Shown one piece after another: positions 30,198 through 60,780 of a stretch of 64,000 bases of DNA; the first letter of the stretch is position 1; each line of letters starts with the position of its first letter. The notes under the pieces were generated by a model. It worked only from the letters and a program-made list of their open reading frames with translations, was not told the DNA's origin and did not search any database. This DNA is from Marchantia polymorpha subsp. ruderalis (lineage: Eukaryota > Streptophyta > Marchantiopsida > Marchantiales > Marchantiaceae). The position numbers and the translations under genes are program-made. The stretch spans positions 1,050,001 to 1,114,000 of the forward strand of contig AP031359.1 in NCBI GenBank assembly GCA_037833965.1, given 5' to 3'.

Positions 30198-30221
30198 AAT
30201 TGTGAGCGCCCACGCGAACAC

Positions 30222-31181: not shown

Positions 31182-31285
31182 TGTTGTGCGACTCAGTATC
31201 GCCATACATCATACATCGCTGACATGCTCTACTCACAACTCACACATACATACACAAGGAACAAGAGTGTCCACACACACGCCGT
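31182..31285 (+). repeat. Terminal repeat L of composite C/D
   Basis: About 104 bp, starting TGTTGTGCGACTCAGTATCG. Its reverse complement is at 34818-34921 with only a few differences (TGTT versus TGTC at the very end, then scattered changes past 31270). It lies about 230 bp before the pol frame. Confidence 0.85.
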
Positions 31286-31519
31286 TTGCGTGCAGATTTG
31301 GTGGTTGTTACACCACTTATTAGCTCATTGCCTACCGGGACGGTAGTGGCAATGGCTGGGGGCGACTTGCGAGATATTCGTCATCCTTGGAGTTCATGGG
31401 ACGTGACGAGAGGACTTGCGAGAGTAGACGCCCATGCAGTTGGAGATGTTGGTCACGGGGAGGTTACTACGAAGGAGGGTACGGAGAACCCTCCTTTGGA
31501 GGAGGTGTCATAGCAACCA

Positions 31520-33139: not shown

Positions 33140-33184
33140 AGAGTAGATAGTCAGTCTTCAGATCCTGAGGTTGAGGATGGTGGT

Positions 33185-34507
33185 GTGGACCAGCGTGATG
33201 TTCACGATGATGCGTTGGTGTTGGAGTTCCTACGGACCAGTATGGTGCCAGGCACAGTGGGTGCCAAGGAGCGAGATCGTGTTCTCCAGAGGGCGAAGAA
33301 ATACCGATTGGAGGGAGCACATGTTCTCCGAGTGTGGGAGGACAGTAGGGTACGGGTAGTACCGCATCCAACTCAAAGAGCACGCATTGTGAAGCATGCT
33401 CATGAGGAGTTGGGACATTTTGGAGTGAAGCGTACGTACAGCTTACTCCTAGGTCAGTATTGGTGGCGTGGTATGCATACGCAGGTGCAGCAGTTGGTAT
33501 CACGTTGCATGGTTTGTGATCGAGTGAGGGCATCGTTCAATGCCCCGACACCAGAGTTACATCCCTTACCTATCATGGGATTGGATTACCGTTGGAGTTT
33601 GGACTTTACTAGACCACTACCTTTGACTACACGACATCATCGGTATGTGTTGGTGATGGTGGAGCATTTCTCCAAGTGGATTGAGTTGGTGGCATTACCT
33701 GACAAGGCGAGTGAGGGAGTAGCATATGCTTTTCTTGACAGGGTGCTTAGTCACTTTGATGCACCAGCTGAGGTGTTGACCAATTAGGGGACAGAGTTTC
33801 AGGGTGAGTTTTAGGTCTTGTGTGACAAGACGCTGATTGATCACCGGACTACTTCCCGAGATCATCCAGAGGCGGATGGTTTGGCTGAGCGGATGGTACA
33901 GACGGTGAAGAGAGCGTTGCGCAAGTATGGTCTACAGAAGGGGCATCTTGGAGACTGGGATATTTAGTTACCATGGTTGGCCATGGGATATCGATTCAGT
34001 CGTCAAGCATTCTTGACTTCGTTTTCACCATATTTTCTATTGTATGGCCGAGATTCAGACTTGCGTGCAGCGATTCGTCGTGAGTCTAGCGAGGTGGTGA
34101 ACCTTGATGATCCAGATATGTGGGTGAGAGTGTGTTCTCAACGTGCAGTGCTCTTTCGGAGAGTTATGCCTGCAACGTTTGAGAACCTTGCGATTGCTCA
34201 GCACCGGGATACGTTGCGGTATGCAACTATTCGAGGAGGAGGTTATCGACCATCGATTCGTAGGTTCCGCGTGGGAGACTACGTCTATCTACAGCAGACT
34301 GCACCGACTACGTTGGATGTGACGGCAGGACGCACTATCTTGCGAGTGCGAGAGGTGTTATCTTCTGGAGTTCTCATGTTGGAGGGTCGTGACGGTGTCG
34401 TTTGGAAGGATCATGTGCGCAACTGTGCGCCATGCCACCTCCCAAACGTGGATGGTACTATGGACCGAAGCTTGGCGATTGTACGTGCCGGCTTGAGGTG
34501 CATGTAA
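33185..34507 (+). pseudogene. pol: Element C integrase
   Basis: The frame reads an HHCC zinc finger ('IVKHAHEELGHFGVKRT' to 'SRCMVCDRV'), 'WSLDFTRPLPL' with the first Asp, 'DAPAEVLTN' where the second catalytic Asp is now Asn (33782-33784), a TAG in 'N*GTEF' (33785-33787, NQGTEF expected), a TAG in 'GEF*VL' (33812-33814), 'HPEADGLAERMVQTVKRAL' with the Glu, and a TAG in 'WDI*LPW' (33965-33967). The C-terminal module (to 34440) includes 'FRVGDYVYLQQ'. Four of the stops are TAG at likely Gln codons. The frame leads directly into a PHD finger. Confidence 0.9.
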
Positions 34508-34651
34508 TGTGGGTCAACTGATCATGCGGCCCATATGTTGGTGTGTGATAGGTGTTCTAGGGGATGGCACATGTCGTGCTTGACTCCACCTATCGATGTT
34601 GTTCCTACTGGACGGTGGGTTTGTCCTCGATGTACTTTAGAGGGTAGATGA
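34490..34651 (+). pseudogene. pol: PHD finger at the integrase C-terminus of element C
   Basis: In frame with integrase: 'RCM', TAA, 'CGSTDHAAHMLVCDRCSRGW', then 'HMSCLTPPIDVVPTGRWVCP' and 'RCTLEGR', ending at TGA 34649-34651. The spacing C-x2-C-x10-C-x2-C-x4-H-x2-C-x14-C-x2-C, with Trp before the His and before the last pair, is a canonical C4HC3 PHD finger, a reader of histone H3 tails. It occupies the place where chromoviruses carry a chromodomain, so a role in targeting integration to chromatin is likely. The stop lies between the first two cysteines (CAA to TAA would restore a Gln). Confidence 0.85.
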
Positions 34652-34817
34652 CTTGATCTTCACATGTTATGAATTGCAGATAGGCGACTAACGATGGGGC
34701 GACATAGCACCCGGCCTACTGGTTTGCGCACCCACGAAGGTGCATAGCATGTAGTTGTAGATAGGGCTACCTTGGAGTCAGAGGGACCTGACCGCCAGCT
34801 AGGGGGGCGAGTTGTGA

Positions 34818-34921
34818 TACCTTTGTGTGGGGACACATTCGTTCCTTGTGTATGTATGTGTGAGTTGTGAGTAGAGCATGTCAGCGATGTATGATGTATG
34901 GCGATACTGAGTCGCACGACA
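34818..34921 (-). repeat. Inverted copy of L inside composite C/D
   Basis: Ends 'GGCGATACTGAGTCGCACGA'+CA at 34921 and is the reverse complement of 31182-31285. It is followed by GC and then by repeat R. Confidence 0.85.
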
Positions 34922-34923
34922 GC

Positions 34924-35205
34924 TGTCATGGCTCGAGATGTTAGTGTGGAGGTGAGTTCAGACACATTATATTTGAGTTTGAGGGTAGATACAAAAAAGG
35001 GTTGGGACGCCCTGCACGTTGGGACGCCATGCACGTTGAGGTGGTCGACCGTGGGTTATATTCGTGGCGAACTCGAAGAACTGACAGTTCTTCGAGTTGA
35101 GCCTTACGCGTCGGGATTTTTCCCCTTAGCTTCGACTTTTAGTCTACCTACGAGTAGTGAGTTTGGCTTGACTCTTTGTGTAGTTGTGTTTCGACATTTT
35201 TAGTT
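34924..35205 (+). repeat. Repeat R of composite C/D
   Basis: Begins TGTCATGGCTCGAGATG. Its inverted copy at 36319-36598 ends the whole insert. It contains a ~17-bp tandem repeat around 'cacgttgggacgcc' (two copies here, three in the other copy) and a perfect 29-nt palindrome at 35070-35098 (arms AACTCGAAGAACTG and CAGTTCTTCGAGTT about a central A). Confidence 0.85.
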
Positions 35206-35390
35206 CGTCTCCGGCCGAGGTAGCACTGGAGTGGCTCACCGGACAACAGTAGGCAATTGATGGCAGACTTAAATGCTGCGCGTCATTGGACAGCTCTGAG
35301 CGAGGGGGACATCGACCTTGCAAATCCGTCGGTCGAGACTTGAATAATTCAGCATGTCTATGATTGACCGAAACCATATGGCCGTGATTG

Positions 35391-35398
35391 TATATATG
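35391..35398 (+). promoter_or_regulatory. Putative TATA box of captured GDSL promoter
   Basis: TATATATG within 'gtgattgtatatatgggg', about 440 bp before the GDSL start codon. The 35210-35833 stretch has gene-flank composition and an ATTGG (CCAAT on the other strand) at about 35284, so promoter and 5' leader appear to have been carried along with exon 1. Confidence 0.4.
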
Positions 35399-35833
35399 GG
35401 GCAGGGCAGCTGCTCGGTAGTCTGTCTCACCATTCCTCGCAGCCTTCTCCCACTTCTAAGTTCTCACTCGCTCGCTCTCTTGCCAAGGGTGAGGCTGAGA
35501 GCTGGTTGCACTTGTCGTCCCCGTCCCTCGACCTTGGCACGTGGGTCTGCTTCTGTCTCCTAGGCCTAGCGAAGTTGAGATCACAGCTAGCTGCTCATCC
35601 TCAAGGCTCGATCCGTAGAGCTCAGATTTGACAGATCGTGATATGAAACAATGCGTGTAGTCTTTGTGCATGGACAGTAGGACTCCTCTCAAAGGGATCC
35701 CGGCTGACGACTGGCTGATTGGAGCAGAAGATTCTTTTAGAAGCCCAATTTAGCAGCGAGGCCGGGTGCGAGTGCAGAGCTCTCCTCGATCGGCGAGTAC
35801 GTTCAGCAGCTGAGCTCGTCCAAGATCTCCGCC

Positions 35834-36070
35834 ATGGCGTCTCAGATATTGCCGATGGTTGCAGCTGTGATCCTTGTCTCGCAATCTCTGTGGGCTCAGC
35901 ATGCACTCGCTCAAGCTGAAGAGCCCTTAGTCCCGGCTCTCATTATCATTGGAGACTCGACCGTGGATGTGGGCAACAACAATGGCCTCGTGACTGTGAT
36001 CAAAAGTAATTTCGGCCCTTACGGACGTGATTTTAGTGCTGGACCTACAGGACGGTTCTGTAATGGGAAG
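35834..36070 (+). pseudogene. GDSL esterase/lipase, exon 1 fragment
   Basis: 79 codons from the ATG at 35834. Residues 1-27 are a signal peptide ('[19 protein letters not shown]'). Residues ~36-50 '[15 protein letters not shown]' are block I of plant GDSL lipases with the nucleophile Ser in GDS. '[19 protein letters not shown]' is the next conserved stretch. The usual continuation is replaced by 'IIIIIF', so the copy ends at or just past the first exon border; the catalytic Asp-His blocks are missing. Such enzymes are secreted hydrolases of about 350 residues. The fragment lies between the inverted R repeats, which suggests capture by the mobile element. Confidence 0.8.
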
Positions 36071-36318
36071 ATCATTATTATTATTTTTCTGAGATGCTTC
36101 GGGCAAATCTATCCGTAAGGTATTACACATAACAAAACGCGAGAGGGAACGACAGGAAACACTTTGTTCGAATCGAACCACGAACAGAAAACCGAAAAAG
36201 CACGAACAAAAACCTGCAGACAAGAACAAAATCATGAATAGAAAACTGAGAAAAAACACAAGCAAAAATCTGAACACACTACACTAACTTCTTCCCTGTA
36301 CTGTCAGTTCTTCGAGTT

Positions 36319-36598
36319 AAAATGTCAAAACACAAAGAGTCGAGCCAAACTCACTACTCGTAGGTAGACTAAAAGTCGAAGCTAAGGGAAAAAACCCCGA
36401 CGCGTAAGGCTCAACTCGAAGAACTGACAGTTCTTCGAGTTCGCCACAAATATAACCCACGGTCGACGACCTCAACGTGCATGGCGTCCCAACGTGCAGG
36501 GCGTCCCAACGTGTACCGCGTCCCAACGTGTATCTACCCTCAAACTCAAATATAATGTGTCTCAACTCACCTCCACACTAACGTCTCGAGCCATGACA
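36319..36598 (-). repeat. Inverted copy of R, right end of composite C/D
   Basis: Reverse complement of 34924-35205, with an additional copy of the ~17-bp tandem unit and the same 29-nt palindrome at 36413-36441. A further half palindrome (CAGTTCTTCGAGTT) sits at 36305-36318 just inside. It ends CCATGACA, followed by the target duplication CGTG. Confidence 0.85.
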
Positions 36599-36602
36599 CG
36601 TG

Positions 36603-36974
36603 GACATCCTTGAACATTGTTGGCCACCAGTACCCTGCGTTCACAATCTTGGTCACCGTATTTCTGATGGCATAGTGGCCACCGGCATCTTCCGTATGCA
36701 TCACACTTACTACCCGTGGAACCTCTGATTCCTCCAAGCATCTACACAGTCTTTCGTCTGCCATCTTCTTGAACAACACCCCATGTTGGAGTTGGTAAGG
36801 ACCAGCCTTATGTATGAAGACAGTCCGTTGCTCAACATCTATCCCCTCTGGGCATTGGAATGTTAGCAAGTACTTGTACAACTCTGCATACCTCGACTCA
36901 TTGCTGGCGAACAACTGAAAAAGTTGTTTGTTGGGGAATCCTCCACCAGCTCTTCCTCTGTTGGTTGGGTCCAT
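36603..36974 (-). pseudogene. pol: Element B integrase zinc-finger half
   Basis: Reads 'LFKKMADERLCRCLEESEVP', 'VMHTEDAGGHYAIRNTV' and 'NAGYWWPTMFKDVH', the His-His half of the integrase HHCC finger. It is cut at GATGTCCACG by composite C/D; the other half continues at 31181 on the minus strand. Confidence 0.85.
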
Positions 36975-38421
36975 AATATGGAGAGGTAGTGTGCATTTTT
37001 GTGGTGAACACCCTCCTTGTCTGCATAGTATATGTGACTATAGGACCCACCTGGCTATGCGTCCGGACAGATCTGCCTTCTTCACTAAATGCTACAAGGC
37101 GTAGTGGTCTACATGGAACACGAACTCGTAGCAGATCTAGTAGTGCCTGAATTTCTTGCAAGAGTACACCATCCCCAACGGCTCTCTCTCAGTCGTGGTA
37201 TACTTCCTCTCTGCTAGCAATAACTGACGGCTCGCAAAATAAATTGGGTAGTCCTTTTTGTTGTCATCCTTTTGACTGAGAACTACACCGATAGCGAATG
37301 CCGACGTGTCGACGTAAACATGGAAAGGTCTGTCCCAGTCCCGACTCCTTAGTATTGGAGCGGTCGTAAGCTTGGATTTGAGGGCCTCAAACGCCAACTG
37401 TTGCTTTTCGCCCCACTCGTAGGGTTCATCCTTCTTCAACAACTTGGTCAGGTCGGCTGCCAAGATTGCATACATATGTATGAATCTTCGGTAGTACCCC
37501 ACATGACCAAGAAATGCCCTCAACTCTCGCAAGTTTGTCGGCGGCTCCAGTTCGAGAATGACTTTGACCTTCTCTGTATCTACTGCAATGCCGCTAGACA
37601 AAACTCGGTGACCCAGCAGGATCCCGCTGGTCATGAAGAAAAAACATTTTTCGGGATGCAACGATAAACTACTCTCCCGACATCGATCAAAAGTTTGTCG
37701 AAGGTGTCCCATGTGCTCCGACTGTCTTCCGAAGACACACCAGTCATCTATAAATATCTCTAGAAACTTTCTCAGTTGCTCTTGGAAGATGTTTGTCATC
37801 ATCCGCTGGAAAGTAGCCGGCGCGTTGCACAAGCCAAAAGGCATTTTGTGGTACGCGTAGGTCTCCCAGTCGGTCGTGAAGGTCGTTTTGTCCTTGTCTT
37901 GTTCCCGGATGGACACCTGATTGTATCCTGAGAACCCGTCGAGAAAACTGTAACACTCATGTCCCGCGACATGATCCAAAATGGCATCCGTGAATGGAAG
38001 GGGGTGATAGTCTTTCCGCATTGCCGCGTTTAATTTCCTGAAGTCCTGGCACACCCGGATCTTACCCGTCAACTTCTTCGGCACGATGACGATCGGGGAT
38101 ACCCATTCAATACTGAGTACTGGGTATATGATCCCCGCGCTGAGGTACTTGTCGATTTCCTCCTTAACCAACAAGGAGTATTTCGGGTTGAGTCTGTACT
38201 GGCGTTGACGAATCGGAACTGCATTGTCCAACAAGTCAATCCGGTGTTCCTTTATACCGCGCAGGTATACCTTTCATGTCTTCAATCTTCCAGGCGAAGA
38301 CATCTTCATATTGGCGAAGGAACGCCTGTACCTCCCTCAACTCTTCTCCCTTCACCTTGCTTGATACCTTGAAGCTCTTCTCAAGACTTAGCTGCACCTC
38401 ACGACAGTCACTAGGATCCAC
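36975..38421 (-). pseudogene. pol: Element B reverse transcriptase and RNase H
   Basis: 38421-38236 is the pre-RT segment with 'QYEDVFAWKIEDMKGI'. The 365-codon frame 38234-37137 holds 'WVSPIVIVPKKLTGKIRVCQ', 'FLDGFSGYNQVSI', 'MPFGLCNAPATFQRMM', catalytic 'FIDDW', 'LRAFLGHVGYYRRF', and the first half of RNase H ('FHVYVDTSAFAIGVVLSQ' and 'TTEREPLGMVYSCKKFRHY'). A TAG follows; the rest of RNase H (37161-36898) is in another frame. FIDDW and the fused RNase H resemble element A, so both belong to plant Ty3/gypsy, but B has its own gag and LTRs. Confidence 0.9.
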
Positions 38422-38595
38422 AATGCCCTCCGTGTGACTCCTTTCGCTACTCCTCAGTCCTACCGTTAATTGCTAATCATCGTCCGGTAGAATATCATCT
38501 AGTTACTCTTCGACAGAACAGCAGGCGACGAATCCCACGAACTCGTCCGTCACATCTATGTCTTCATGCGACGAGCAGCTTTCCACCTCCGAGGT

Positions 38596-38967
38596 TTAAC
38601 CCAAGCTGGTCGATTGTGTCTCGCCTTCATGAGGTACCTTGCTCCATGGAACGGTGATGGTCTTCAAAGGATCTCTGGAGTTTGGAAACCGTAGTCGCTT
38701 CCTCTGCCAGTCACACCGCACTTGTGCACCGTACAGCCATGGTCGCCCAAGTAAGATCTTGTATCTTCTCTTCATCAAAGGCTGCAGAATGATGTAGGTC
38801 AGTTGAAAATCCGCGCCACCGATATTTGTTCTGATATTGCGCAACATGCCCAGCGGCATTCTCCGTGTTTGGTCCGCCAACCTCAACACTCGCGTAGTAG
38901 GCTCAAAAGTTCTAAACCCTAAGCAGCGCGCAATATCCTCTGTCATTATGTTAACTCCTGATCCTTA
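38596..38967 (-). pseudogene. pol: Element B aspartic protease
   Basis: The catalytic region reads 'VPVD', TAA (38965-38967), 'GSGVNIM', so the stop follows the catalytic Asp directly. The rest is intact: 'RCLGFRTFEPTTRVLRLADQ', 'PLGMLRNIRTNIGGADFQ' and 'ILLGRPWLYGAQVRCDW', the second hallmark of retroelement proteases. Confidence 0.85.
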
Positions 38968-40102
38968 GTCCACCGGTACCTTGCGAACGTAGCACCCACC
39001 AATCTCCACATCAATCTCAGGAGGTCCCAAGTCTTCGCTGGTTACGTGGTACACCTCGGGAAGTTTGACCGCACGGGGCTTCCGCGGACGGCGTAGCGAA
39101 AGCATTAACATCTTTCGATACGTCTTGTTATCTTCTAGCAGCTGGTTAAGGGTAATGTTAGCCCGCTGATTTCCTATGTCTTCCACTACATCGTAGTGGG
39201 TGTGTTGGCGTGCCGCCACCGTCTTACGCTGTTCCGAGGTTGCAGACGGGTGAGTGGCAGAAGGACCCGAAGTGTTCCGTCCTTCCGACTGCGTCTGATT
39301 ACGGAGTGCTTCCTTGAGAAGTTCGGTGACTTCGTCCTTGATGTCCGGGACGTACTCCTGTCTTAACACAAGCATTGCTTCCTCTTCAGTCTTTGTATCA
39401 GGCCGCGCCGAAGGCGTTTCGCGCATAGCCGAAGGCCTACCTGCAGACCTCGAGTCTGCCTTGTTACTTGCCTTCTCTTCTCCTCTCATCTTCCGGTCTT
39501 CGGACTTGCAACTGTGCTTGCGATTATCCCTTTCATCATCTTTCAATCTCTTCGAGCTGCGGGTCTCCATCTTGCCGCACATAATTTCTTCTTCTGGCCA
39601 TTCCTCCTCCTCGTCATTCTTGTCCGAACTCAAATCGACTTGATTGACCTGAACATCTTTCTTCGCAGGGGGCGTCACAAAGAGCACATTAGGTCGGCCT
39701 GCTGGGGTCACATTCTACTGAGGTATGCCCAGATTTTTGGCAGTTGCTACAGGTCGGAACATACCCTGTCTGTATTTTTGGGTGAGGGCATTGGGGAGAG
39801 TAATGCCTCACCTCTCCACAATTGAAGCAGGCCCGCGGTGGCGGTTGATTATACGTCCCTGGAGGTGCCATGCGCCTCTGGGGTAACCTAGTTGCCATGT
39901 CCCTCAGAGCATACCGCGGTATATGTACTGACTGAATAGGAGTCGTAGCTGGGGTCGACTGGATGGCATAAGCCGCATCTTCACTCGCCTCGGCATAATA
40001 CGGGGGATTTTTCCACTGACGTGCCCATTCGACTGCGTTCACTGGGTAGGACGGCCGAGTGGTGAGACATTCGGTATTAGCATGTCCCACTTGCCCGCAC
40101 AT
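38965..40102 (-). pseudogene. gag: Element B gag C-terminal part with zinc knuckles
   Basis: 40102-39689 has three CCHC-type knuckles: 'CGQVGHANTEC' (preceded by C-T-M across a stop), 'CFNCGEVRHYSPQC' and 'CSNCQKSGHTSVEC', which bind RNA. 39711-38965 is an acidic/basic linker that leads straight into the protease; it contains 'ADSRSAGRPSAMRETPSARP', where GCCGAAGGC palindromes encode PSA repeats. Confidence 0.85.
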
Positions 40103-40108
40103 AGTACA

Positions 40109-41284
40109 TCATAGGTTCGCCCGCAACCTCCATGGAGACTTCCGTCGGTCTTGGCCGCCCACCACGTGGACTTTCAAGTCCGCGAAGTCCTTCACCAGGG
40201 TTTCTACATTGGAGGCAATGTCTCCCGAACCTTTGTCCGTATTAGCCATTCTATGGCCCTTCTTCTTTGCCGCTCCACGCTTCTTCTTCTTCCTATCTTC
40301 CTCCGACGAGGATGTCTCCTCCTCTTCCGATGAAGCACTGCCTTCATCCGAGGACAATTCTTTCGACAAAGGCGTAGCTCCTCGGCGTTTCCTTCGTCCT
40401 CCTTTCGGCTTTCGTCCCACCGAGTCCCGTCGCTCTCTTCCTCTTCGGTTAAGAGTGGAGGTCTCAAAGGCTTCTGCCGATGCGATGACATCTTCGATGG
40501 TGTCGCACTTCCCACGTCTGCAGAAGGTTTCCATCTCCCTTGTTGACCCGGTCACGTACTAGTCCACCGCTTGCTATATTGAGAAAGGGGATCCTGGTCC
40601 CGTCTTCGGAATTCTGTTGAGAAGGTCTTAGAACCTCTCCGTGTAGTCACGAAGGTTCTCCTTCCGTTCTCGTTGGAGGTTACGCAGTTTGATTAGCACC
40701 CGACTGTCGTAGCCAAGCTGGCGGAATCGTCGAAGGAACTCTTCCTTTAGCTGAGCCCACGTTTGCAAACCATTCGGGTCGGTACTCTCGTGGTTGTACC
40801 AGCTGCGCGCCTTCTTGCGCAGTAGGCAAGGAAATATCCGCAGTCTATCGTCATCGCTGATCTCTCGGTTGGTGACCGATAGTGATTCGAACAGCTTGAT
40901 ATATGAGTCGGCATCATCATCATCCCCGCTCTCCTTGTACTTCAGATATGAATGTTTCGTAAAAGGTTGAGAGTACGTCGGGCGAGGGTTGGCTGGTTCG
41001 TCCGCCATTGGGTCGTCTGTCGACGGCTTCTGGGCGGTCTGATCTAAGTTTAGGGAAGATTCTGTGGAGGGTATTTCTAACAGCACCGTGAGCATGAAGT
41101 TCGATTCAGACGCACTGGTTGTCTCTTCCCAAGTGGTGCTGGTCAAACTGGGCTTGGGTAATGTTTCCGATGTTTTAGTTTTCTCCTTCTGACGCCGTTT
41201 TTCTTCCACGGCTTTCTCTGAATCTCGACGGAGTTTGCGGGTAGCTCGCGCACTTAGTTTGCTCCCACCTGCTCCTATCGACAT
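40109..41284 (-). pseudogene. gag: Element B gag N-terminal and capsid part
   Basis: The start codon at 41284 lies about 40 bp past the primer binding site. The frame 41284-40628 ends with the retrotransposon gag block 'ARSWYNHESTDPNGLQTW' and 'LKEEFLRRFRQLGYDSRV'. After a break it continues in 40555-40109 with 'CDTIEDVIASAEAFE' and a Ser/Glu/Lys-rich stretch ending before the zinc knuckles. Together with the next feature this is a roughly 600-residue Gag in pieces. Confidence 0.85.
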
Positions 41285-41327
41285 TCACCGAGCATTGTTG
41301 CTCACGTACTCCGGTGTTGACGCATTG

Positions 41328-41345
41328 TCCCCGGCAGCGGCGCCA
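41328..41345 (-). other. Primer binding site of element B (tRNA-Asp type)
   Basis: The plus strand reads TCCCCGGCAGCGGCGCCA, the 3' end of plant cytosolic tRNA-Asp with one difference (AACGG in the tRNA, AGCGG here). On the minus strand it follows the LTR end TTATTACA by 22 bp. Confidence 0.8.
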
Positions 41346-41672
41346 AAAAGAAGTCGTCGGCTCCTTATGTAATAACCCACCAAAGGCTAAAACTGCAGTA
41401 TAGCAGCAAAAAGGTCGAACCCACAAGGACAGAGGCAAACCACATAGTACAAAGTGTCACGTTTAACATACTATTGAAGAGTTTGAATTCTCAGGCGACT
41501 GTCACACCTAGAAATACTGCAAGTGCTCAACTCGGAGGTCACTCGGAGGACGCACAGTGCAGCGTAGTTCACCCCAACACACATGTGGTAACCCACATTT
41601 TGTTTTTGTGCGGAAATTAAAAACAATTTTGGAAAACAGTACCGCAGCAGCTGTGTAAATGGCGATCTGTAC

Positions 41673-41682
41673 ATTTAAATAG
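41673..41682 (+). promoter_or_regulatory. First TATA-like element of the B-family LTR
   Basis: ATTTAAATAG about 90 bp from the LTR start, followed by AGTG. The same site is seen in E4 (56764-56772, TTAAAATAG) and in the 3' LTR of B (30081-30094, minus). Its place about 1.25 kb upstream of the LTR ORF start would suit a dedicated promoter for that ORF. Confidence 0.4.
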
Positions 41683-41999
41683 AGTGAAGATAGATAATCG
41701 CGGGTCTCGTATGATCTTGTAGTATCCAAAAGTTGGGCGCAATGTCCGGAACAGCTGCCCTGACCTGAACGATCAATTCTGAAGGAGTTCTCCTTCGGCG
41801 CAAGACGCATAATCCGCCTTCGGCGATACGCCTTTGGCACTAGGGAAATCCCTCAGAGCTTATGCCATTCACAACGCCTTGACTTGACTAGGGTCTCGTT
41901 GAAAAGAGCTCGACACGCTCGTTCTAACGAGCCCAAGAACGCTTGGGACGGATGAGGACTCAAGGAGTTGTGACTGTCGGAAGATGCAAAGACGGACGC

Positions 42000-42460
42000 C
42001 TTCGGCGGAAGGAGTTCGTCGTCGGCGGGAATTCCGCCGGGAAATCCGCCTTCGGCGGAAGGAGTTCGCCTTCGGCGTAGGCACTTCGCCATCGGCGGAA
42101 TATCCGCCTTCGGACCTAGATGTTTGCCTTCGGGGGTGAAGTTTGTACGGCGCCTACGGCGCCAGCGCATCAAGATTAGGTAAGTACATACGGGGTAGCG
42201 ACTCCGTACGGTACGCCTTTGGCTCAACGATTCCGGCGGAGCAAACAGGTGCGCCCTCGGCGGGAGAGAACTCCGACGGTGAGTTCGCCTGCAGAGGGAC
42301 AAGAGGGATCGACATAAGAGATGAAATCCATTGACCACGGTCTACGCCGACGGGCATCTTTAGGGAGATACGCCGACGGACATCTTCGGCGGTAGGAACG
42401 CCTTCGGCGCTGCGGGTCAATGCCTTCGGCGGAACGCCTTCGGCGGTGCGGGGTGGATGC
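42000..42460. repeat. Palindrome cluster GCCTTCGGC in E2
   Basis: About fifteen copies of GCCTTCGGC or close variants (GCCATCGGC, GCCCTCGGC, GCCGTAGGC) lie here, often as CGCCTTCGGCG, at irregular spacing. The matching zone of E4 (57050-57620) has partly different units, GCCTACGCATAGGC, at other positions. Confidence 0.8.
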
Positions 42461-42927
42461 GAGTAGCGCGTCGGCCAGAGAGACGCCTTTGGCGCTGCGC
42501 GACCATGGCCGCGGCGAAGTACGATGGCGGAACTCAAATTGAAATTTTGAGCGTGTGAGTGCGCGCGACGGCGGAGCATGAAGCCGCGCGTGCGAGAGGA
42601 GGGCTGTTACGCCTCCAAGCCGGCGCAGCCATCAAGTGAGTCGACATTCACGACCAAGTGCCGACCATGACATCCTGCGAGCGGAGAACGGACACTTCAT
42701 TCTTGAATTTGCGATTTCAATTTCTTGTGCGAGCTGCGCGCGTCCACCTTCTAGCCGAGAGAAATTCGAGACACCGACGCGCAGAGACTCGCAAGGTGAC
42801 AGAGAGAGAATTGAGTGCGCAACAATCGGAATCGAGAGAGATTAGAGTTTGCAGGAGAATCGCAGTCGCGGGCAAGAAGCTTGAGTGTAGCAGAGGAAGG
42901 TTCACGAAATCCAATTTCAAGAACGCG

Positions 42928-45665
42928 ATGTCGAAGCCCACTCAGCTGCGGATGATTCCGCTCAAGATCCCGCAGATTGGGTTGCGCGCTTACTAGGACC
43001 GGCTGTTTGCAGTGAAGCTCGATTTGCTCCTGTGGGGATGGAATTGCGTGTGCCAGGACATGGTGCGCGAATGGCAAAGGGATAGACACCAACCTACGCG
43101 CGGATTCCAACCGCACGTAGAGCGTTGGACTGTTCAAGATTGAGGACAAGTGCTAGAAAGATGTGCAAGCGAGGACGGGTTTCTCCTATTTGATAGTGAG
43201 AGCGTCAAGGTGACGAAGGAGGAAGACGCCTCCTTCGCGGACTTGTTCAAGAGTGAGAAGTCCAGCAAGAACGGGTACAGGACCCGTGACTACAAGGATT
43301 GCTACCGCAGAAATGTAGCGGTGGCACTTCTGCAACTCTTGCAGCCGCACCGAACAACATACATCACTTCTTGGCAAGTTTCTTTCGTGGAGCTGGCGTT
43401 GGCCGGAGTTCTGATTCACTGGTCGCGTATCCTGCATAAGATAACGCGGTAGCATGCATTTGAGGAGAGGGGGGGATCGATCAATCATCTCTTCCCCTTC
43501 TTGATAAACTTTTATCGGTCGATGGGTTGCTTAACAGCGACCGAGCGTATTCGGTATCCGCTGCTGTCACTCAGCAATCCCGGGAGGTGTGTGAGGGATA
43601 ACGAGGTCGACTCCGTCGCGGAAGACACTCCGACCTCCACGCCACCAGCTCAACAGGATGCGGAGAGGGAAACATTCGCAGCACTCGTGCCGCGGAAGCG
43701 GAGATGGAAGGGAGACCCGGAGAAGGAGCCACGTCGAGATTCGACGGCTCTCAAACGGAAGCGGCCACTGGAGGAGATTTGCAGTCGGCCGAAGCAGAAA
43801 GCGCGCCGGCTTGTATTGCCTGCAAGTAGCGCGGAGACAGCGCGGGCCGCCGGAGAGAAGGAGACCCCATCCTTGGAGGAGGATGGGAATGCACGGACGG
43901 CAGAGGGGTCAGCGGACCTCCCTACGCCGAAGGCACGGACGCCTTCGGGATAAGCAAGACGACCTTCGGGTCAAGAGAGACAACACGCGGCACGGATGAG
44001 TGTGCCGCCTACGAATAGGAGAACTGCTACGGATAGGAGTGACTCGCCTTCGGGGTTGGGGCCTTTGGCACGTGCGCCTTCGGCGCAGTCGCCTCCGGTG
44101 CAGCGCAGGAAAAGAAAGGAGCCGGCGGAGGATCCGCCTTCGGCTCAAGGGCCTTCGGGGCTAGGTCCTTCGGCGGTGAGACCGCCGGAAAATGCGCCTT
44201 CGGCGCAAGGGCCTTCGGGCCACAGAGTTGCAAGTAGGGAGCCGGCGGGAAATGCGCCCTTGGCGGGAAGTCCGCCGGAAGGTGCGCCTTCGGGCCAAGG
44301 GACATCAGGTGAGCCGTCTTCGGCTCAACGGCCTTCGGCATAAGCGCCACCGACAATTGTGCCTTTGGCGGAGGCACCTCCAGCGCAGGACCTATCGAAG
44401 GAGCGGGAGCTAACGGAGGACCGGATTGACAGTTGGAAGGAGTAAACACGTGTGTGCAATGCACAATTGCAATCCGCGTAGACACCTTCCGCACAAACGC
44501 CTTCGGCGGTGAACGCCTTCGGCGATGCGGAGTTAGCAAAAGCCGGTCGGGCGGGCGATGCGAATTTGGCACAACTCCACTCTCCCACCGCCTTGGACAG
44601 TCTGGCAGGAAGCAGCGAGGCTGTAGCGGCGACAGTGGTGGCAGACGACGCAGACATCTTGAAGCCACACTCACGACAGTCGCCGGAGAATTCAGTGGCG
44701 ACTAAAATCCTCAATTCGGAGGATGACGAAGAAGGAGGATCGACGAAATCAGCGTCGGGATTGGAATCGAGTGAGGAGGAGAGACAATCAGTGGTAGGCA
44801 CGCCAACGGCGACACTCTGCGAGCAGATGGTACCTCTGTTGAGGTACCTTGATCGCAAAGTGGAGAAGTATGCAGACCCGAGCCAGCCTGGGTCCTACGT
44901 CGAATTAGTGCGTAGGCGAACTCGCACTAAAGTCCACACCAGCAAGTTGTTGGCCCGTGTGGATCGGGAACTTAAGGATGTGCGGGAGAAGTATGAGTGC
45001 TTGTGGGGCCACCTTAATCTCACTCGGAAGATGCACAAGGTCCTCGACAAGTCGAACGACGATAAGATCGAAGAGGCGGCAAAGGAGTTTGCCAAGGAGA
45101 AGGCGAAGCTCATAGAGGAGCTGGATTCTGAGCAGGCTCAGATTCGAATTTTGTCAAAGGAGCTGGTGCAACAGACACGGTTGTTAGAGCAGTGTCAGCT
45201 CGCACGGCAGGCGGATGAAGAATTAATCCGCAAACTGCAATCCGAGTGCGGGGAATTGAGAGCGCAGCGTGCGGAGGCCAAATTGCAGTTAGTTGTAGTT
45301 GAAGACGATCGCCGGCGGGAGGCAGATCGCACGAAGGAAGAGTTGGCGAGGCGAGTCAACCACTGTCTCAGAGGTTACGCCCACTAGGAAGTGGCAGCGC
45401 AGGAAAAACTCACACTGCGCGAGATAGAGCTTTGTGCGGCGGGTTTGATGTCAGGTGACAGTCGGAGCCGGCGGCGAGTGGCGAAGAAGCTGGATTCGTT
45501 TCTGTCAAAGTCGCGGGACGCCATGGCCACCCTCGAGACAGAGGTTTCTGCGGTGTTGCAGCGGTTGGGACTGCGCAGTCGAGCTGAAGACTGGCAGGGT
45601 AGGGAGTTAGTGTGCGGCAGTCCGTCGCGCAGAAGGCGAAGCACCGGCTTCCGTGCAGGCGCGTA
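42928..45665 (+). pseudogene. LTR-encoded two-domain protein in E2
   Basis: The ATG at 42928 starts 'MSKPTQLRMIPLKIPQIGLR', stopped by TAG at 42994-42996. Next come 'LLLWGWNCVCQDMVREW', a TGA for Trp, 'GFLLFDSESVKVTKEED', 'KNGYRTRDYKDCYRRNVAVA', 'TYITSWQVSFVELALAG', a TAG in 'ITR*HAFEE', and 'FLINFYRSMGCLTA'. The linker has 'PRKRRWKGDPEKEPRR' (nuclear-signal-like) and Pro-Ser-Ala repeats (43996-44343). 44509-45387 is an intact 292-codon frame: 'CEQMVPLLRYLDRKVEKYAD', 'SYVELVRRRTRTKVHTSKLL', long coiled coil, 'RVNHCLRGYAH', TAG for Trp, then 'VAAQEKLTLREIELCAAG' and 'RRVAKKLDSFLSKSRDAMAT'. Full length would be near 900 residues. Confidence 0.7.
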
Positions 45666-45702
45666 GCGTAGTGCAATGTAGTGTTAGTTAGGACTTAGAG
45701 GG

Positions 45703-45709
45703 TATAAAG
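45703..45709 (+). promoter_or_regulatory. Second TATA-like element of the LTR (U3/R promoter)
   Basis: TATAAAG just after the end of the LTR ORF, about 970 bp before the LTR end. It is conserved in E4 (60781-60787) and in the 5' LTR of B (47271-47277, minus). The position suggests that U3 ends here, which places the ORF inside U3. Confidence 0.5.
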
Positions 45710-46458
45710 TAGTTCAAGGCGTCTTGCCTTGGGATTCTTCCAGTTTCGGAAGTGCAGATCAGGAACTCATTTTCTCTGCGTGATTGTGTCCTTAGTTCTT
45801 TCACCACGCAAGAGGAGCTACAACTTGGCAATCCGCATTTTGTAGCTGAAGGCCTTCGGCCGAATGTTCAGAGCTAGTGTACTGGTTAGAGACTTGAGTA
45901 GTTCGGATCTACATCTGCGGGTGATTGCCGATGCTCAGAGCCAATTACTAGTTAGATACTTGAATAGTTGCCCCTTACACTTTCGAGTGATTGTTCCTGA
46001 TTGTACTCCTTCGGGATTTTTCCCTTGAATACCAAAGTGAAGTTTTGTTACTTCGAGTAAGCCTTGGTTGTAATTCAGGTTACGCTGCAGCAGGTGCCTT
46101 CAGGGCAACCCCTATAGTATTTCTGGGAATGACAAGTGCCTAAGAATTCAAACTCTTCAATAGATTGTTATGGTGTGCTACTAGATCGTTTCTTAGCTGA
46201 GTCTCTTAGTCAGACCTGTGTTCTTTGCGCGTTTTGTGAGTTGAGTGTGTTGTTCACCGCGTGTGAGTGACTTCGATCCGAAGTAGGAAGTCCAATCCGG
46301 GTTCCTTGTGCTAGCAGAAACTAGTGGAAGGGTTGTAAAAGCCGGAGTTGGGAGTCACTACCCGCAGATTCGCTGAGTGTATTCGCGAGAGACTTTTCCC
46401 TTGAAATCTTGAGTAGAGGTCCTAACCGATCTCTAGATTGTGTTTCTGTAGTTTCAGG

Positions 46459-46481
46459 TGTGTGTGTGTGTGTGTGTGTGT
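46459..46481. repeat. (TG)n microsatellite in U5
   Basis: About eleven TG units; shorter in E4 (61540-61561, with one interruption). It sits at the position where the other LTRs have 'cacacctgaaac' reverse complement. Confidence 0.8.
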
Positions 46482-47335
46482 CACGCTGCACTATGCAACC
46501 TCCGAGTGAGCTCCGAGTGAACACTTGCAGTATTTCTGGGAGTGACAGTCGCCTGAGAATTCAAACTCTTCAATAGTCTGTTAAATGTGACACTTTGTAC
46601 TCTGTGTGTTGCCTCTGTCCCTGTGGGTTTGACCTTTCTACCACTATATTGCAGTTTTAGCCTTTGGTGGGTTATTACAACACACCTGAAACTATAGAAA
46701 CACAACTCAGAGGTCGGTTAGGACCTCTACTTAAGATTTCAGGGGGAAAGTCTCTCACGAGTACATTCAGCGAATCTGCAGGTAGTGACTCCCAACTTCG
46801 GCTTTTACAACCCTTCCACTAGTGTCTGCTAGCACAGGGAACCCGGTTTGGACTTCCTACTTCGGATGCGGTATCTTTGTCAAACCAAAGTCACTCACAC
46901 GCGGTGAACAACACACTCAACTCACAAAATGCGTAGAGAATATAGGTCCGAACTAAGAAACTCAACAGAGAAAAGATCCAGTGACACACCATAACAGTCT
47001 ATTGACGAGTTTGTATTCTCAGGCACTAGTCATTCCCAGAAATACTACAGAGGTTTAGTAGGTGTAGATCCAAACTGCTCAAGTATCTAATCAGTACACT
47101 AGCTCTGAACATTCAGCCGAAGGCCTTCAGCTACAAAATGCGGTATCTTTGTCAAGCTGTAGCTCCTCTTGCGCGGTGACAGAACTAAGGACACAAACAC
47201 GCAGAGAAAATGATATCCTGATCTGCACTTCCGAAACTTGAAGAATCCCAAGGCAAGACGCCTTGAACTACTTTATACCTTTTAAGATCCTAACTAACAC
47301 TCTACACTACACTACGCTGCACTACACTGCAGGTC

Positions 47336-48195
47336 TGTAAGACCGGGTGTTGCACATATGTACTAAGTCTTAGAAGTGGTCAAGGGAATAAGGATGATTA
47401 GCCAAGGCATAGCTAAGACTAGCTAGTTATGACTAAACTAGTTAGTTATAACTAAGTTTATCTAGTCATGACTAAGTTTAGCTACAATGTCTATAGTTGG
47501 CGGAGTAATTAGCGGAGTTCTAGAAGAATGGAGTGAGCACTTCTATTTTGTCTTTTACAAGGAGTGAGCACTTCTATTTTGTCTTATACAAAAGTTCTAG
47601 ATTCCAAGGGATTAGATATTTGACTAGAAGCTTGGATTTGATTGGTTTGACTAAATGTATGAAAGATGATTGGCTAGACTAAGTCTAATGTTGACTTAGT
47701 GGCTAGGAAGCTTGTAGAAGTTTAAAAGCTTCCAATGGCATGTCGCCACCTCAACCTTGGATTCCGGAAGCTTCTAGAAGGTTTAGGTAGGCCAATGGCA
47801 TGTTGCCACGTAGAGAAGGTTAGTCAAACTTACCTAGGTAAAAGTAAGTTAGGAGAAATTACCACATGTTACTATGGTAACTTCTCAAGTAGTATAAATA
47901 GAGAGGTAGAGTAGCACCTCTCAAGCAAGTTTGGAGAGTCATGTGTGAGGACTTGTTTCAGTAATGAGGAGTGAAGTTTTCGAGTATCTTGGAGTATCGA
48001 CGTGTGTTTGCGTTTATGTGAAGAGGGTGATGTGAGGAGAGTTTGTGTGTGTGAGTTGGAGTGATACATGAGAGTTTGTGAGAGAAGGTGTTTGTGACAT
48101 GAGTGAGAGTATGAATCCTAGTCTTCTAGAACCATGATGCGCTACCACAAAGCCATCAGAGGTAGACCTGAGTGAGAGTCAGCCCGGAGGTTGCA
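47336..48195 (+). mobile_element. G: 860-bp LTR-like insertion
   Basis: Starts TGTAAGACCGGGTG, ends GGAGGTTGCA and is flanked by GGTC (47332-47335, 48196-48199); the uninterrupted site is present in the 3' LTR of B near 26435. TG...CA ends, a TATA box (TATAAATA, 47893-47900) and no ORF suggest a solo LTR. The interior has short inverted and direct repeats around 'ctagttatgactaa' (47410-47480) and a duplicated 'ggagtgagcacttctatttt' (about 47539 and 47562). The strand is taken from the TATA box. The flanking 'GCAGGTC' matches on both sides, so the duplication could be 4 to 7 bp. Confidence 0.7.
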
Positions 48196-48213
48196 GGTCA
48201 TCTACTGTGTCTC

Positions 48214-50718
48214 CTACGCGACGGATTGCCGCGCGCTAACGCCCTTCCCAACCTGTCTTCGGCTCGACTGCGCAACCCCAGTCGCCGCAACACCGCAGTC
48301 ACCTCCGCCTCGAGGTTTGCAATGGCGTCCCGCGACCTTGCCAGGAAGGCATCTAATCGCTTCGCCACTCGCCGTCGGCTCCGACATCAAGCCCGCCGCT
48401 CGAAGCTCTAACTCGCGCAATGTGATTTTCTCCTGCGCAGCCACTTCCCAGAGAGTGTAACCTCTTAGACAGTGGTTAACACGTTCCACCAACTCTTCTC
48501 GCGTGCGATCTGCCTCCCGCCGGCGATCGTCTTCAACTACTACCAACTGCAACTGTGCCTCCGCACGCTGCGCTTTCAATTCGCCGCACTGCGATTGCAG
48601 TTGACGAATTAAGTCTTCATCCGCCTGACATGCGATCTGACACTACTCTAGTAACCATGTTTGTCGCACGAGCTCCTCTGACAAGATGCGATTTTGAGTT
48701 TGCTCAGAATCGCGCTCATCCGCGAGCTTCGCCTGCTGCTTGGCGAATTCCTTCTTCGCCTCCTCGAACTTCTCGTCCCGCGTCTGGTTAACTACCTTCT
48801 GCAATTTCCGCACGATTGCGAGGTGTCCGCGGAGAGCCTTGTTCTTCATCCGCAAGTCCTTGATGTCCTCGTCTAAGGAGGCCAACAAGCTACTAGTCCT
48901 GACTTTGATGCGCGTTCGCCTGCGCATCAATTCGACGTAGGACCCAGGGTGGCGGGGGTTAGCATACTTCGCCACCTTGCAATCAAGGTACCTCAATAGA
49001 GGTACAACCTGTTCGCACAATGCCGTCGTCAACGTGCCTTTCACCGACTGCTCCTCCTCGTCCGAGCCTGATTCATATTCATCATCCTCCGAATTGAGGA
49101 TTTCGGTCGCCACGGAATTCCTTGGCGATTTCCGGGAGTTGGGTTGCGTAGCTTTTGCTGCTGCTGCCGCCGCACTACTCCCTGCCAAAATGTCTAATGC
49201 AGTGGGAGATCCTGTTCCCGACAAGCCCGCACCGCCCGTCTGATCAGTCACTACCAAAGGCGTAGCGCCAAAGGCAACTTAGCCGAAGGCACACGTGCCT
49301 CCTTCTTCTCCTCGTCGACCGTCCTCTCGCATGGGGTCTGTGCCGAAGGTACTTTTGCCGGCGGCGCTTCCGCCAAAGGCATCTATCGCCAAAGGCAGTT
49401 GAGCCGAAGGCGGCTCACCTGAAGGCCGTTGACCCGAAGTCCCTTGGGCCGAAGGCGCTTCAGCCGAAGGCTCTTCAGCCAAAGGCTCCTTACCCAAAAG
49501 CTCTTGGGCCGAAGGCCCTTGAGCCGAAGGCGCCTTACCCGAAGTCTCCTTCCCACTTTTGTGCTGCGCCGAAGGCTCCTGACCCGAGGTCGAGTCATCG
49601 AACGGTACTTGCTCGGACGCGAAGCACCTGTCCGCCGCCGGCACATTCGTCGGTGCGGCGTGTTGTTTCTCCTGAGCCGAAGGCCGTCTTGCTTACGCCA
49701 AAGGCGTCCGTGCCTTTGGCGCAGGGAGGTCCGCTGACCTCTCTGCAGTCCGCGCGCTCACATCCTCCCCCGAGGATGGTGAGTTCTTTCCCTCTGCAGC
49801 ACGCCCCGTCTCCGCGCTGCTTGCGGGCAACACGAGCCTGCGTGCTTTCTGCTTAGGCCAACTGCAGAGCTCTGTCAGTGGCCGCTTCCGTTTGATAGCA
49901 CCATCCTCGCGTTGCTAGCCCTTCTCTGCTCCTCCTTCCCATCTTCGCTTCCGCGGCACTCGTGCTGCGAGCGATTCTCCTTCGGCCCTCGGTTGGGCTG
50001 GTGGCGTGCAGGCAGGGGTCTCGTCTTCGTCGGTGTCGACCTCAACGTCCTTCACATACCGCCCCAGATTGCTGCGTGACAGCAATGGAAATTGCACCCG
50101 CTCGGTCGCAGTCAGACAACCCATCGACCGATAGAAATTGATCAAGAAGGGAGAAAGGTGATTGATCGATCCGCCCTTCTCCTCGAACGCATGCTGCCTC
50201 GTTATCTTCCACAAAATGCGAGCCCAATGAATCGGAGCTCCGGCCAAAGCCAGCTCCACGAATGCCACCTGCCAAGAAGTTATGTAGTTGGTGCTGTGCG
50301 GCTGCAAGAGTTGAATAAGTGCTACCGCGACATTTCTGCGGTGGCGATCCTTGTAGTCCCGGGTCTTGTACCTGTTCTTGCTAGACTTGCTACTCTTGAA
50401 TAGGATCGCAAAGGAAATCTTCTCCTCCTTCGTGACCTTGATGCTCTCACTCTCAAATAGAAGATGACCTTCCTCTCCCGCGCATCTTCCCAACACCTGC
50501 TTCCAGTCACTGACGTCCCATTGCTCTACGTGCGGTCGAAACCCGCGCGTAGGTTGATCCTTTCCCTTCTACCACTCGCGCAACATGTCTTGACACACCC
50601 AATTCCATCCCCACAGGAGGAAATTGAGTTTCACTGCAGTCAGCTCGTGCTGGAATGCGCGCAACCCAATCTGCGGTAGCTTCAGCGGAATCATCCGCAG
50701 CTGCGTCGCCTTCGACAT
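48214..50718 (-). pseudogene. LTR-encoded two-domain protein in the 5' LTR of B
   Basis: ATG at 50718. The N-domain reads 'MSKATQLRMIPLKLPQIGLR', 'AFQHELTAVKLNFLLWGWNW' and, in the 193-codon frame 50496-49915, 'LLFESESIKVTKEEKISFAI', 'KNRYKTRDYKDRHRRNVAVA', 'NYITSWQVAFVELALAGAPI', 'INHLSPFLINFYRSMGCLTA' and 'ARVPRKRRWEGGAEKG'. The linker 49644-49279 is a run of PSA/PSG repeats. The C-part 49257-48643 has 'CEQVVPLLRYLDCKVAKYAN', 'SYVELMRRRTRIKVRTSSLL' and coiled coil; 48579-48214 ends with 'RVNHCLRGYTLWEVAAQEKI'. This is the pair of 26482-28890 and is less damaged. Confidence 0.7.
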
Positions 50719-51095
50719 CGCGTTCTTGAAATTCCCCGCGCACTTCAGAAGTCCGCAACTTTCTTTTGCTAGCTCCTCGCTTCTAGCACGCGGATGCGAT
50801 CTCTCCGCGAGCTCTCACTCTCACTCCCTAGCAATTCCCTCGGCCGCGCACTCAACTGCTTTGCTCTGTCCTGCTCGTGTCGCAGCTCTCTCCGATTTCT
50901 CTCCGCCAATTCGTGTGCGCACTCAGTTCTCGCGAGAAATTGAAATTGTAATTTCAAGAATGAGACGCCCGCCTTCGGCACACAAGATTTCATCGTCAAC
51001 ACTTGGGCGTGGGGATCAACCCTCTTGATTGCCGTGCCGGCTTGGAGGCGTAACGGCCCCCCTCTCGCACGCTCGACTTCAGGCTCCGCCGTTGT

Positions 51096-56674: not shown

Positions 56675-57079
56675 TGTAGTAACCCACTTTTGGTATTTTT
56701 GCGGAATTTAAAACATTTTTGGAAAACTGTACCACGGCAGCAGTGTAAATAGCCATCGGTACATTAAAATAGAGTGAAACTGGATGATCTCGGAGAATCT
56801 CGTAGAATCTCATAGAATCCAGGAGTTGGGCGCAATGTCTAGAACAGGCGCCGCCCTAAACGACGGGCTTTGAAGGAGTACCCCTTCGGCGCAAGGCGCA
56901 TAATCCGCCTGCGGCGCTACGCCTTCGGCGCTAGAGGAATCCCTCAGAATTTATGCAATTTCCAAACGCCTTGACTAGGTTAGGGTTTCGTTAGAAAGAG
57001 CTCGACGCGCTGGGTCCAACGAGCCCAAGAACGCTTGGAACGGATCAGGACTCAGGGAGTTGTGACGGTCGAAAGATAC

Positions 57080-60744: not shown

Positions 60745-60780
60745 CATAGTGCAGTGTAGTGTTAGTTAGAACTTAGAAGG

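What the first reader, a model, noticed from the sequence alone, without database searches (positions are those of the whole stretch)
41584..46679. Giant LTRs carry a conserved protein-coding gene of their own
Four B-family LTRs (25389-30184, 41368-51095, E2 41584-46679, E4 56675-61760) of about 5 kb each carry an ORF in LTR sense orientation with the same order: N-domain (LLWGWN, FDSESVKV, KNGYRTRDYKD, SWQVSFVEL), a basic nuclear-signal-like patch, a PSA-repeat linker, an acidic patch, VPLLRYLDRKxEKY, coiled coil, and a CLRGYxxWEV C-terminus. The LTR limits are fixed by target duplications, a tRNA-Asp primer site and a polypurine tract, so the gene lies inside the LTR, upstream of a TATAAAG that would end U3. 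Coding LTRs are very rare in plant retrotransposons. The function is unknown; nuclear location and self-association are inferred from the basic patch and coiled coil.
Basis: partly seen in the sequence, partly recalled or inferred. Interest (0 to 1): 0.88.

Follow-up and report, generated by a model that had tools for sequence, protein, structure and literature searches.

The report
Jumping element's repeat ends encode protein
An abundant jumping DNA element, most likely of a liverwort, carries inside each of its giant end repeats a long protein gene that selection has conserved, an arrangement known from a mouse virus but not found in plants by these searches, so that even leftover lone repeats can keep a whole gene.

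Summary
E2 (41584-46679) and E4 (56675-61760) are solo LTRs with 5-bp target duplications, each with a broken copy of one gene. Elsewhere in the genome (most likely Marchantia polymorpha, from protein names) the same LTR, 5,385 bp in one near-identical pair, holds a 1,049-codon stop-free frame that lies wholly upstream of the U3 TATA box. The frame is full length in 44 of 44 scored copies (of 13,250 candidates), 32 without stops. Of ten stop-free copies examined, five are solo LTRs with matching duplications, three follow a polypurine tract and two precede the primer site, so the gene lies in the LTR. Median pairwise dN/dS is 0.22 (N-domain) and 0.29 (C-domain), against 0.57-0.74 for noncoding LTR read as codons. 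The internal region is Ty3/gypsy gag-pol. Searches gave no Pfam or PDB relative and no named relative outside Marchantia. Best reading: a U3-encoded accessory protein, last ORF of the genomic RNA, placed like sag of MMTV. Function and expression are untested.

The parts
41584..46679 (+). E2: solo LTR (U3-R-U5), inserted in another LTR of the same family
   Evidence: TG...CA ends, ACACA both sides; aligns nearly end to end with an LTR elsewhere (L043)
41579..41583 (.). left target duplication ACACA of E2 (right copy 46680-46684)
   Evidence: read from sequence
42667..45666 (+). E2 copy of the LTR gene: N- and C-domain in one frame, eight in-frame stops before the terminal stop
42928..43698 (+). 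E2 N-domain
   Evidence: tblastn 61% to the 1049-codon frame, 3 stops
44884..45636 (+). E2 C-domain (behind VPLLRYLDRK, through CLRGY)
   Evidence: tblastn 74%, 1 stop
45703..45709 (+). TATAAAG downstream of the gene, presumed near the end of U3
   Evidence: sequence; counterpart TATAAAA at LTR position 4407 of the whole copy
56675..61760 (+). E4: solo LTR inserted in the internal region of another element
   Evidence: AGGTA both sides; its two flanks are contiguous in the related element at 9311-14254
58140..58910 (+). E4 N-domain, stop-free over 257 codons
   Evidence: 75% identity to the 1049-codon frame; dN 0.169, dS 1.208
59951..60666 (+). E4 C-domain, broken by a frame shift and a stop
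   Evidence: two tblastn pieces, 77% each
25389..30184 (-). LTR of a minus-strand element, 3' by its purine tract, with a broken gene copy (N-domain 28155-28754, C-domain 26542-27162)
41368..51095 (-). opposite LTR, truncated, interrupted by E2 and by an insert at 47336-48193; gene pieces 49948-50718 and 48367-48951
41338..41345 (-). primer-binding site TGGCGCCG, 22 bases past the LTR end
   Evidence: 1220 LTR-end-to-TGGCGCCG junctions genome-wide, 0 in the reversed control
30185..41367 (-). internal region between the two minus-strand LTRs (reverse transcriptase 37137-38234; a plus-strand RT at 31520-32680 belongs to something inserted)
   Evidence: Pfam RVT_1; aligns in two blocks with the internal region of the whole copy
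19999..22422 (-). third, divergent lineage of the same gene (N-domain 39% identical, 5 stops)
24113..25388 (-). second lineage of the gene, C-domain side, next to the 25389-51095 element and probably cut by its insertion
   Evidence: in part by eye; weak tblastn match 24089-24469

Best explanation
This is a Ty3/gypsy retrotransposon family whose polypurine tract sits directly behind pol, so that everything downstream, including a protein gene of about 1,040 codons, is U3 and is copied into both LTRs at each round of reverse transcription.

Shown: the gene is in the LTR, upstream of the TATA motif. It is present in 5', 3' and solo LTRs. It is open in many copies and under purifying selection.

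Inferred: in the genomic RNA the gene is the last ORF after gag-pol. It is expressed either from a spliced RNA that starts at the 5' LTR or from a promoter in the first 1.2 kb of U3. The protein acts in trans for the element as a nuclear, self-associating accessory factor, most likely a regulator of expression or silencing. Because both LTRs descend from one template, each new insertion carries two identical genes. Solo-LTR formation, which removes gag and pol, leaves the gene whole.
For: Near-identical LTR pair (99.98% over 5,617 bases with short flanks) around 5.8 kb of internal sequence; each LTR has a 1,049-codon frame, and the pol frame ends 40 bases before the LTR. ATG at LTR 1248, stop ends at 4370, TATA motif at 4407. 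Full-length match in 44 of 44 scored copies, 32 stop-free. Ten examined copies: five solo, three 3', two 5'. 5,361 exact LTR 3' ends and 1,220 LTR-primer-site junctions, controls 0. Tree-wide omega 0.31 (N) and 0.37 (C) by MGK; omega = 1 with the best kappa of a grid is worse by 243 and 101 log units. N-domain pairs drift from 0.71 at dS < 0.1 (6 pairs) to 0.18-0.21 at dS > 0.4. Internal gag, CCHC, RT, RNase H, integrase, and a protease match just under Pfam's cut-off. LTR 1126-1275, around and before the first ATG, is conserved while 451-600 is not.
Against: No transcript, protein or transposition evidence was available. The stretch after the first ATG (about 85 codons) has dN/dS 0.59, no different from noncoding LTR. 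No relative of known function and no usable structure model. The linker is poorly conserved. The near-identical pair used for anatomy lies in a tandem LTR-internal-LTR array, and so, by its flanks, does the second pair that I probed. I did not close a single element with matching duplications at its two far ends: tries at two elements failed.
Confidence: 0.8

Rival explanations
1. The gene is its own transcription unit: a promoter in U3 positions 1-1250 drives it and the LTR's own polyadenylation region ends it, so that solo LTRs are thousands of potential stand-alone genes.
For: Conserved blocks at LTR 1-375 and 1126-1275 flank a variable stretch. Whole frames are found in solo LTRs, 5 of 10 examined.
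Against: No transcript evidence. Conserved U3 blocks may be enhancers of the genomic promoter, and whole frames in solo LTRs can simply be young.
Confidence: 0.4
2. The gene is read from a spliced RNA that starts in R of the 5' LTR and joins to the U3 of the 3' LTR, as recalled for sag of MMTV.
For: The gene lies in U3, directly behind pol and the polypurine tract, so a genomic RNA carries it only at its 3' end (inference from the copying scheme).
Against: No splice site was tested; a conserved block before the ATG is also what a promoter would look like.
Confidence: 0.4
3. A host-gene fragment was captured once and rides along without use; open frames reflect youth only.
For: The youngest copies are 98-100% identical in protein, so youth alone would keep them open.
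Against: Pairs with dS above 0.8 still show medians of 0.18-0.27, against 0.57-0.74 in noncoding LTR and 0.88-1.80 in four of five off-frames. A lineage with a 39% identical N-domain keeps recognisable N- and C-domains.
Confidence: 0.05
4. The 5-kb unit is not an LTR but a separate transposon or an internal region.
For: E2 and E4 stand alone in the window, and their short inverted end repeats could suit a DNA transposon.
Against: A pair around gag-pol, polypurine tract on one side, primer site on the other.
Confidence: 0.01

Closest known systems
sag gene of mouse mammary tumor virus (accessory protein encoded in the 3' LTR; PMC3026287, passages seen)
   Same: A protein gene inside the LTR makes the LTR unusually long.
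   Different: MMTV is a retrovirus of mice with an LTR of about 1.3 kb. Here the host is a plant, the LTR is 5.4 kb and the frame about three times longer (length of sag recalled). Sequence relation to sag was not sought as such; the Pfam scans showed none.
Extra ORFs (eORF, aORF) of plant Ty3/gypsy elements: Ogre, Retand, Athila, Grande (PMC6317226, PMC7264820, PMC11963269; passages, one section)
   Same: An additional ORF downstream of pol in a large Ty3/gypsy element; long LTRs up to about 5 kb occur; function unknown; the Grande product is reported as nuclear.
   Different: PMC7264820 and PMC11963269 place aORFs in the internal region; [quoted passage not shown] The Grande aORF is antisense. 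Here the frame is sense and behind the polypurine tract, hence in U3 and in both LTRs. No PMD, Transposase_28 or Athila ORF-1 match was found.
ORF0 of Retrosat2, RIRE3, RIRE8 in rice (PMC3485330, passages seen)
   Same: Large element, LTRs of about 3 kb or more, an extra gene of unknown function with Ka well below Ks.
   Different: ORF0 lies upstream of the gag-pol ORF.
ORF3 of bdelloid rotifer LTR elements (PMC5408684, passages seen)
   Same: Extra genes added to gag and pol.
   Different: Not described as LTR-encoded in the passages seen; several have known enzyme or env-like domains.

Membership tests
Ty3/gypsy LTR retrotransposon | gag, protease, RT, RNase H, then integrase in this order | tested here: met
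   Pfam on the internal frames of the whole copy; the protease match (E 1e-4) is just under Pfam's cut-off
Ty3/gypsy LTR retrotransposon | paired LTRs with TG...CA ends, primer site, polypurine tract, short target duplication | tested here: met
   duplications seen on solo LTRs, not on a complete single element
Ty3/gypsy LTR retrotransposon, tRNA-Asp primed | primer site complementary to tRNA-Asp | tested here: inconclusive
   likeness to tRNA-Asp is recalled; the tRNA request did not complete and one search found no tRNA in four loci
Chromovirus branch | chromodomain after integrase | tested here: not met
   no chromodomain at E <= 1 in the pol frame
Plant OTA superclade (Ogre, Tat, Athila) | RT-based placement; second RNase H for Tat | not tested
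   no reference RT set on hand; Pfam showed one RNase H region
Plant OTA eORF proteins (PMD PF10536, Transposase_28 PF04195, Athila ORF-1 PF03078) | match to one of these domains | tested here: not met
   not among the matches for P0001-P0004 and two further window pieces, for P0006 or for 14 N-domain rows; HMMER's filters drop most matches above E 0.1
U3-encoded accessory gene (MMTV sag-like position) | whole frame within U3, upstream of the TATA box | tested here: met
   ATG 1248, stop ends 4370, TATA 4407 in a 5,385-bp LTR; the U3 end is by motif, not by mapped RNA
U3-encoded accessory gene (MMTV sag-like position) | expressed from the 3' LTR by splicing | not testable with these tools
   no RNA data

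The most novel reading that the evidence does not exclude
Every LTR, solo ones included, is a self-contained gene for a trans-acting protein. The element has thereby turned its own decay product (thousands of solo LTRs) into a dispersed gene family that keeps supporting, or regulating, the remaining full-length copies. This would be a plant counterpart of U3-encoded retroviral accessory genes, arisen by a shift of the polypurine tract.
Probability: 0.35. Interest if true: 0.92.

Novelty: new variant of a known kind. Interest (0 to 1): 0.82.

Why it matters
Solo LTRs are usually taken to be dead ends without coding power. Here five of the ten stop-free copies examined are solo LTRs, so LTR-LTR recombination does not remove the gene. 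The family is large in what is most likely a model plant with easy genetics, which makes the role of a plant retrotransposon accessory gene directly testable. It also suggests that dozens of 'hypothetical protein' gene models of Marchantia are pieces of one transposon gene, and warns that annotation which takes LTRs as noncoding can miss such genes.

Tried and rejected
Internal-region reading: rejected by junctions. Chance frame: rejected. Pfam, PDB sequence and PDB fold searches gave nothing useful. The weak CENP-K match of P0008 (E 0.0018, below cut-off), the FliJ match of P0004 (E 0.0054), two N-domain matches at E 0.099 and 0.21 and one PDB match at E 0.57 look like background. Two structure models were of low confidence (mean pLDDT 44 and 53); Foldseek gave no match at E <= 0.001 and I draw nothing from it. 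I recall a loose likeness of the N-domain to plant transposon-protein domains (Transposase_32 type); this is memory only and found no support in Pfam. CpG decay as the cause of the uneven divergence between 25389-30184 and 41368-51095: CpG transitions are 88 of 389 differences in the gene part and leave 11% non-CpG divergence there against 3-7% elsewhere, so it explains only part. To close single elements I fetched the expected far ends of two elements and found no LTR end. The tRNA gene for the primer was not found.

Limits of the counts. The pairwise N-domain set (43 rows, 903 pairs) contains copies seen twice (L030/L042, L032/L044) and a threefold segmental repeat (L034-L036). Of the pairs, 840 of 903 (N) and 298 of 325 (C) entered the dS bins; those with dN = 0 or saturated dS were dropped. 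Identical or short rows were removed for the tree (39 and 21 rows left), and stop codons were treated as gaps. The noncoding control (19 fragments and one reference row, 187 pairs) is shallower (median dS 0.14-0.17) than the coding sets; at dS 0.1-0.2 the coding medians are 0.37 (N, 90 pairs) and 0.40 (C, 13 pairs), still below it. One antisense frame also gave low ratios (0.32 and 0.41); its third positions are the third positions of the sense frame. One search scored 44 of 13,250 candidates and one search scored 150 of 7,771; both are the nearest copies, not a random sample. The ten copies were chosen among those without stops. Five of the 44 copies lie in one tandem array. In one search two of eight rows are truncated, so the R-U5 value is too low. 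The paper lists were capped (15 of 328, 15 of 27, 10 of 20, 10 of 24).
Full report
WHAT IS IN THE WINDOW. The window is C1:1050001-1114000 of a 241.5-Mb assembly in nine contigs. It is a nest of retrotransposons. E2 (41584-46679) and E4 (56675-61760) are both bounded by TG...CA ends and the same 5 bases on each side, ACACA and AGGTA, and neither has a partner LTR of its own within its duplication: they are solo LTRs. E2 sits in another LTR of the same family. E4 sits in the internal region of another element, whose two halves are contiguous in the related element at 9311-14254. On the minus strand, 25389-30184 and the interrupted 41368-51095 bracket an internal region with a reverse transcriptase. 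A purine tract lies before the first and TGGCGCCG after the second.

THE GENE IN THE WINDOW IS BROKEN. E2 has its N- and C-domain in one frame, from an ATG at 42667 to a stop at 45664, with eight in-frame stops between. The E4 N-domain is stop-free over 257 codons, while its C-domain is split by a shift and holds a stop. The two minus-strand copies are also broken. Two more lineages of the gene occur at 19999-22422 (N-domain 39% identical, five stops) and 24113-25388 (in part by eye).

ELSEWHERE IT IS WHOLE, AND IT IS IN THE LTR. A genome search with an N-domain piece gave 7,771 candidates; 150 were scored, and most of the listed matches cover the piece from end to end. A stretch on C2 holds two LTRs, 99.98% identical over 5,617 bases including short flanks, around 5.8 kb of internal sequence. 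Each LTR carries one stop-free frame of 1,049 codons. Its first ATG is at LTR 1248, the stop ends at 4370, and TATAAAA begins at 4407 of 5,385. The pol frame ends 40 bases before the next LTR, which leaves room for little but its stop codon and the purine tract. With this protein as query, 44 of 44 scored places (of 13,250 candidates) match over all 1,049 residues at 98-100% identity, and 32 have no stop. For ten stop-free copies I read the LTR ends: five are solo with GGATT, ATCCA, TGAGT, CAAGT and GGCCG on both sides; three follow the purine tract (one by eye); two precede the primer site. Genome-wide there are 5,361 exact matches to a 30-base LTR end and 1,220 junctions of the last 11 LTR bases with the primer site; reversed controls gave none.

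SELECTION. Pairwise dN/dS has a median of 0.22 for the N-domain (43 rows, 903 pairs) and 0.29 for the C-domain (27 rows, 325 pairs). It falls from about 0.7 at dS < 0.1 (6 and 4 pairs) to 0.18-0.21 (N) and 0.18-0.29 (C) at dS > 0.4. That is what purifying selection during activity followed by neutral decay predicts. Codon-model omega over the tree is 0.31 and 0.37 (39 and 21 rows), and omega fixed at 1 loses 243 and 101 log units. Noncoding R-U5 sequence treated as codons gives 0.57-0.74 (187 pairs), so the neutral baseline of the pairwise estimator is below 1; that control is shallow, and coding pairs of the same depth (dS 0.1-0.2) give 0.37 and 0.40. Four of five off-frame readings give 0.88-1.80; the fifth, whose third positions are those of the sense frame, gives 0.32 and 0.41. 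The stretch of about 85 codons after the first ATG gives 0.59 (27 rows, 339 pairs), which is no evidence for constraint, although 23 of the 24 rows that reach the start have the ATG. Across eight LTRs the N- and C-domains (mean identity 0.76 each) stand out from the linker (0.50); a block around and before the first ATG is also conserved.

WHAT THE PROTEIN IS. By composition: an N-terminal domain of about 250 residues; a basic patch with RKRR; a linker rich in P, S and A; an acidic patch; a C-domain with a modest heptad signal (z = 2.9; N-domain -0.2, linker -1.6); and a basic tail with RRRR. No Pfam match was reported for the whole protein and none below E 0.05 for 14 N-domain rows; no PDB sequence matched below E 0.5; the models are of low confidence. 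The three protein searches found 4, 3 and 120 proteins. All of these that bear a species name are from Marchantia polymorpha subsp. ruderalis (hypothetical proteins AXG93_...); the rest are unnamed, mostly short contigs. The first search scored only the 7,991 candidates sharing most words. I infer that the genome is M. polymorpha or very close; that C1 (5.6 Mb) may be a sex chromosome is a guess.

MECHANISM. Because the polypurine tract primes plus-strand synthesis (established knowledge; also PMC7264820), whatever lies between it and R becomes U3. Here the tract follows pol directly, so the gene is U3. It is then the last ORF of the genomic RNA and is copied into both LTRs. An ancestral extra ORF between pol and the 3' LTR, a frequent place for extra ORFs in plant elements (PMC7264820), could have become LTR by a shift of the tract upstream; this is inference. 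How the protein is made (spliced from the 5' LTR, or from a U3 promoter) cannot be settled without RNA. The best guess for function is a nuclear accessory factor acting on expression or silencing of the element (inference; a parallel seen in print is the nuclear product reported for the antisense ORF of Grande in PMC11963269).

WHAT IS KNOWN. I saw passages of PMC6317226, PMC11963269, PMC3485330, PMC5408684, PMC9985172 and PMC3026287, and of PMC7264820 passages and one section. [quoted passage not shown] MMTV sag is the clear precedent for an LTR-encoded protein. Searches for LTR-encoded genes in plants or for Marchantia LTR elements listed no report of one, judged from titles and abstract starts of capped lists; subscription papers and preprints are not covered.

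Noticed in passing
41368-51095 against 25389-30184: The two LTRs that bracket one internal region differ by 4-8% in R/U5 pieces but 14% in the gene part; CpG decay explains only part of this, so gene conversion or a mixed origin is possible.
   Followed up: partly
C2:31340956-31388838 (L055, L056 cover part) and C7:18997548-19011485: Tandem LTR-internal-LTR arrays of near-identical units; spacing of primer sites on C2 is 11,184 bases.
   Followed up: partly
L055:5532-8369 and the frame before it: Gag-protease and RT-integrase frames are in the same reading frame, separated by a single stop codon, in the one copy seen; whether this is regular or a mutation was not checked.
   Followed up: no
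47336-48193: 858-base insert in the minus-strand LTR, with short ATAACTAAGACTAGCTAGTT-like repeats and contiguous LTR on both sides.
   Followed up: no
C1:2.44, 2.85 and 3.19 Mb: The same LTR-gene copies recur three times with identical scores: segmental repeats on the 5.6-Mb contig.
   Followed up: no
AXG93_ gene models of Marchantia polymorpha: Many 'hypothetical protein' models match this LTR gene; two (P0078, P0123) carry a name beginning 'Integrase c' in another source.
   Followed up: partly
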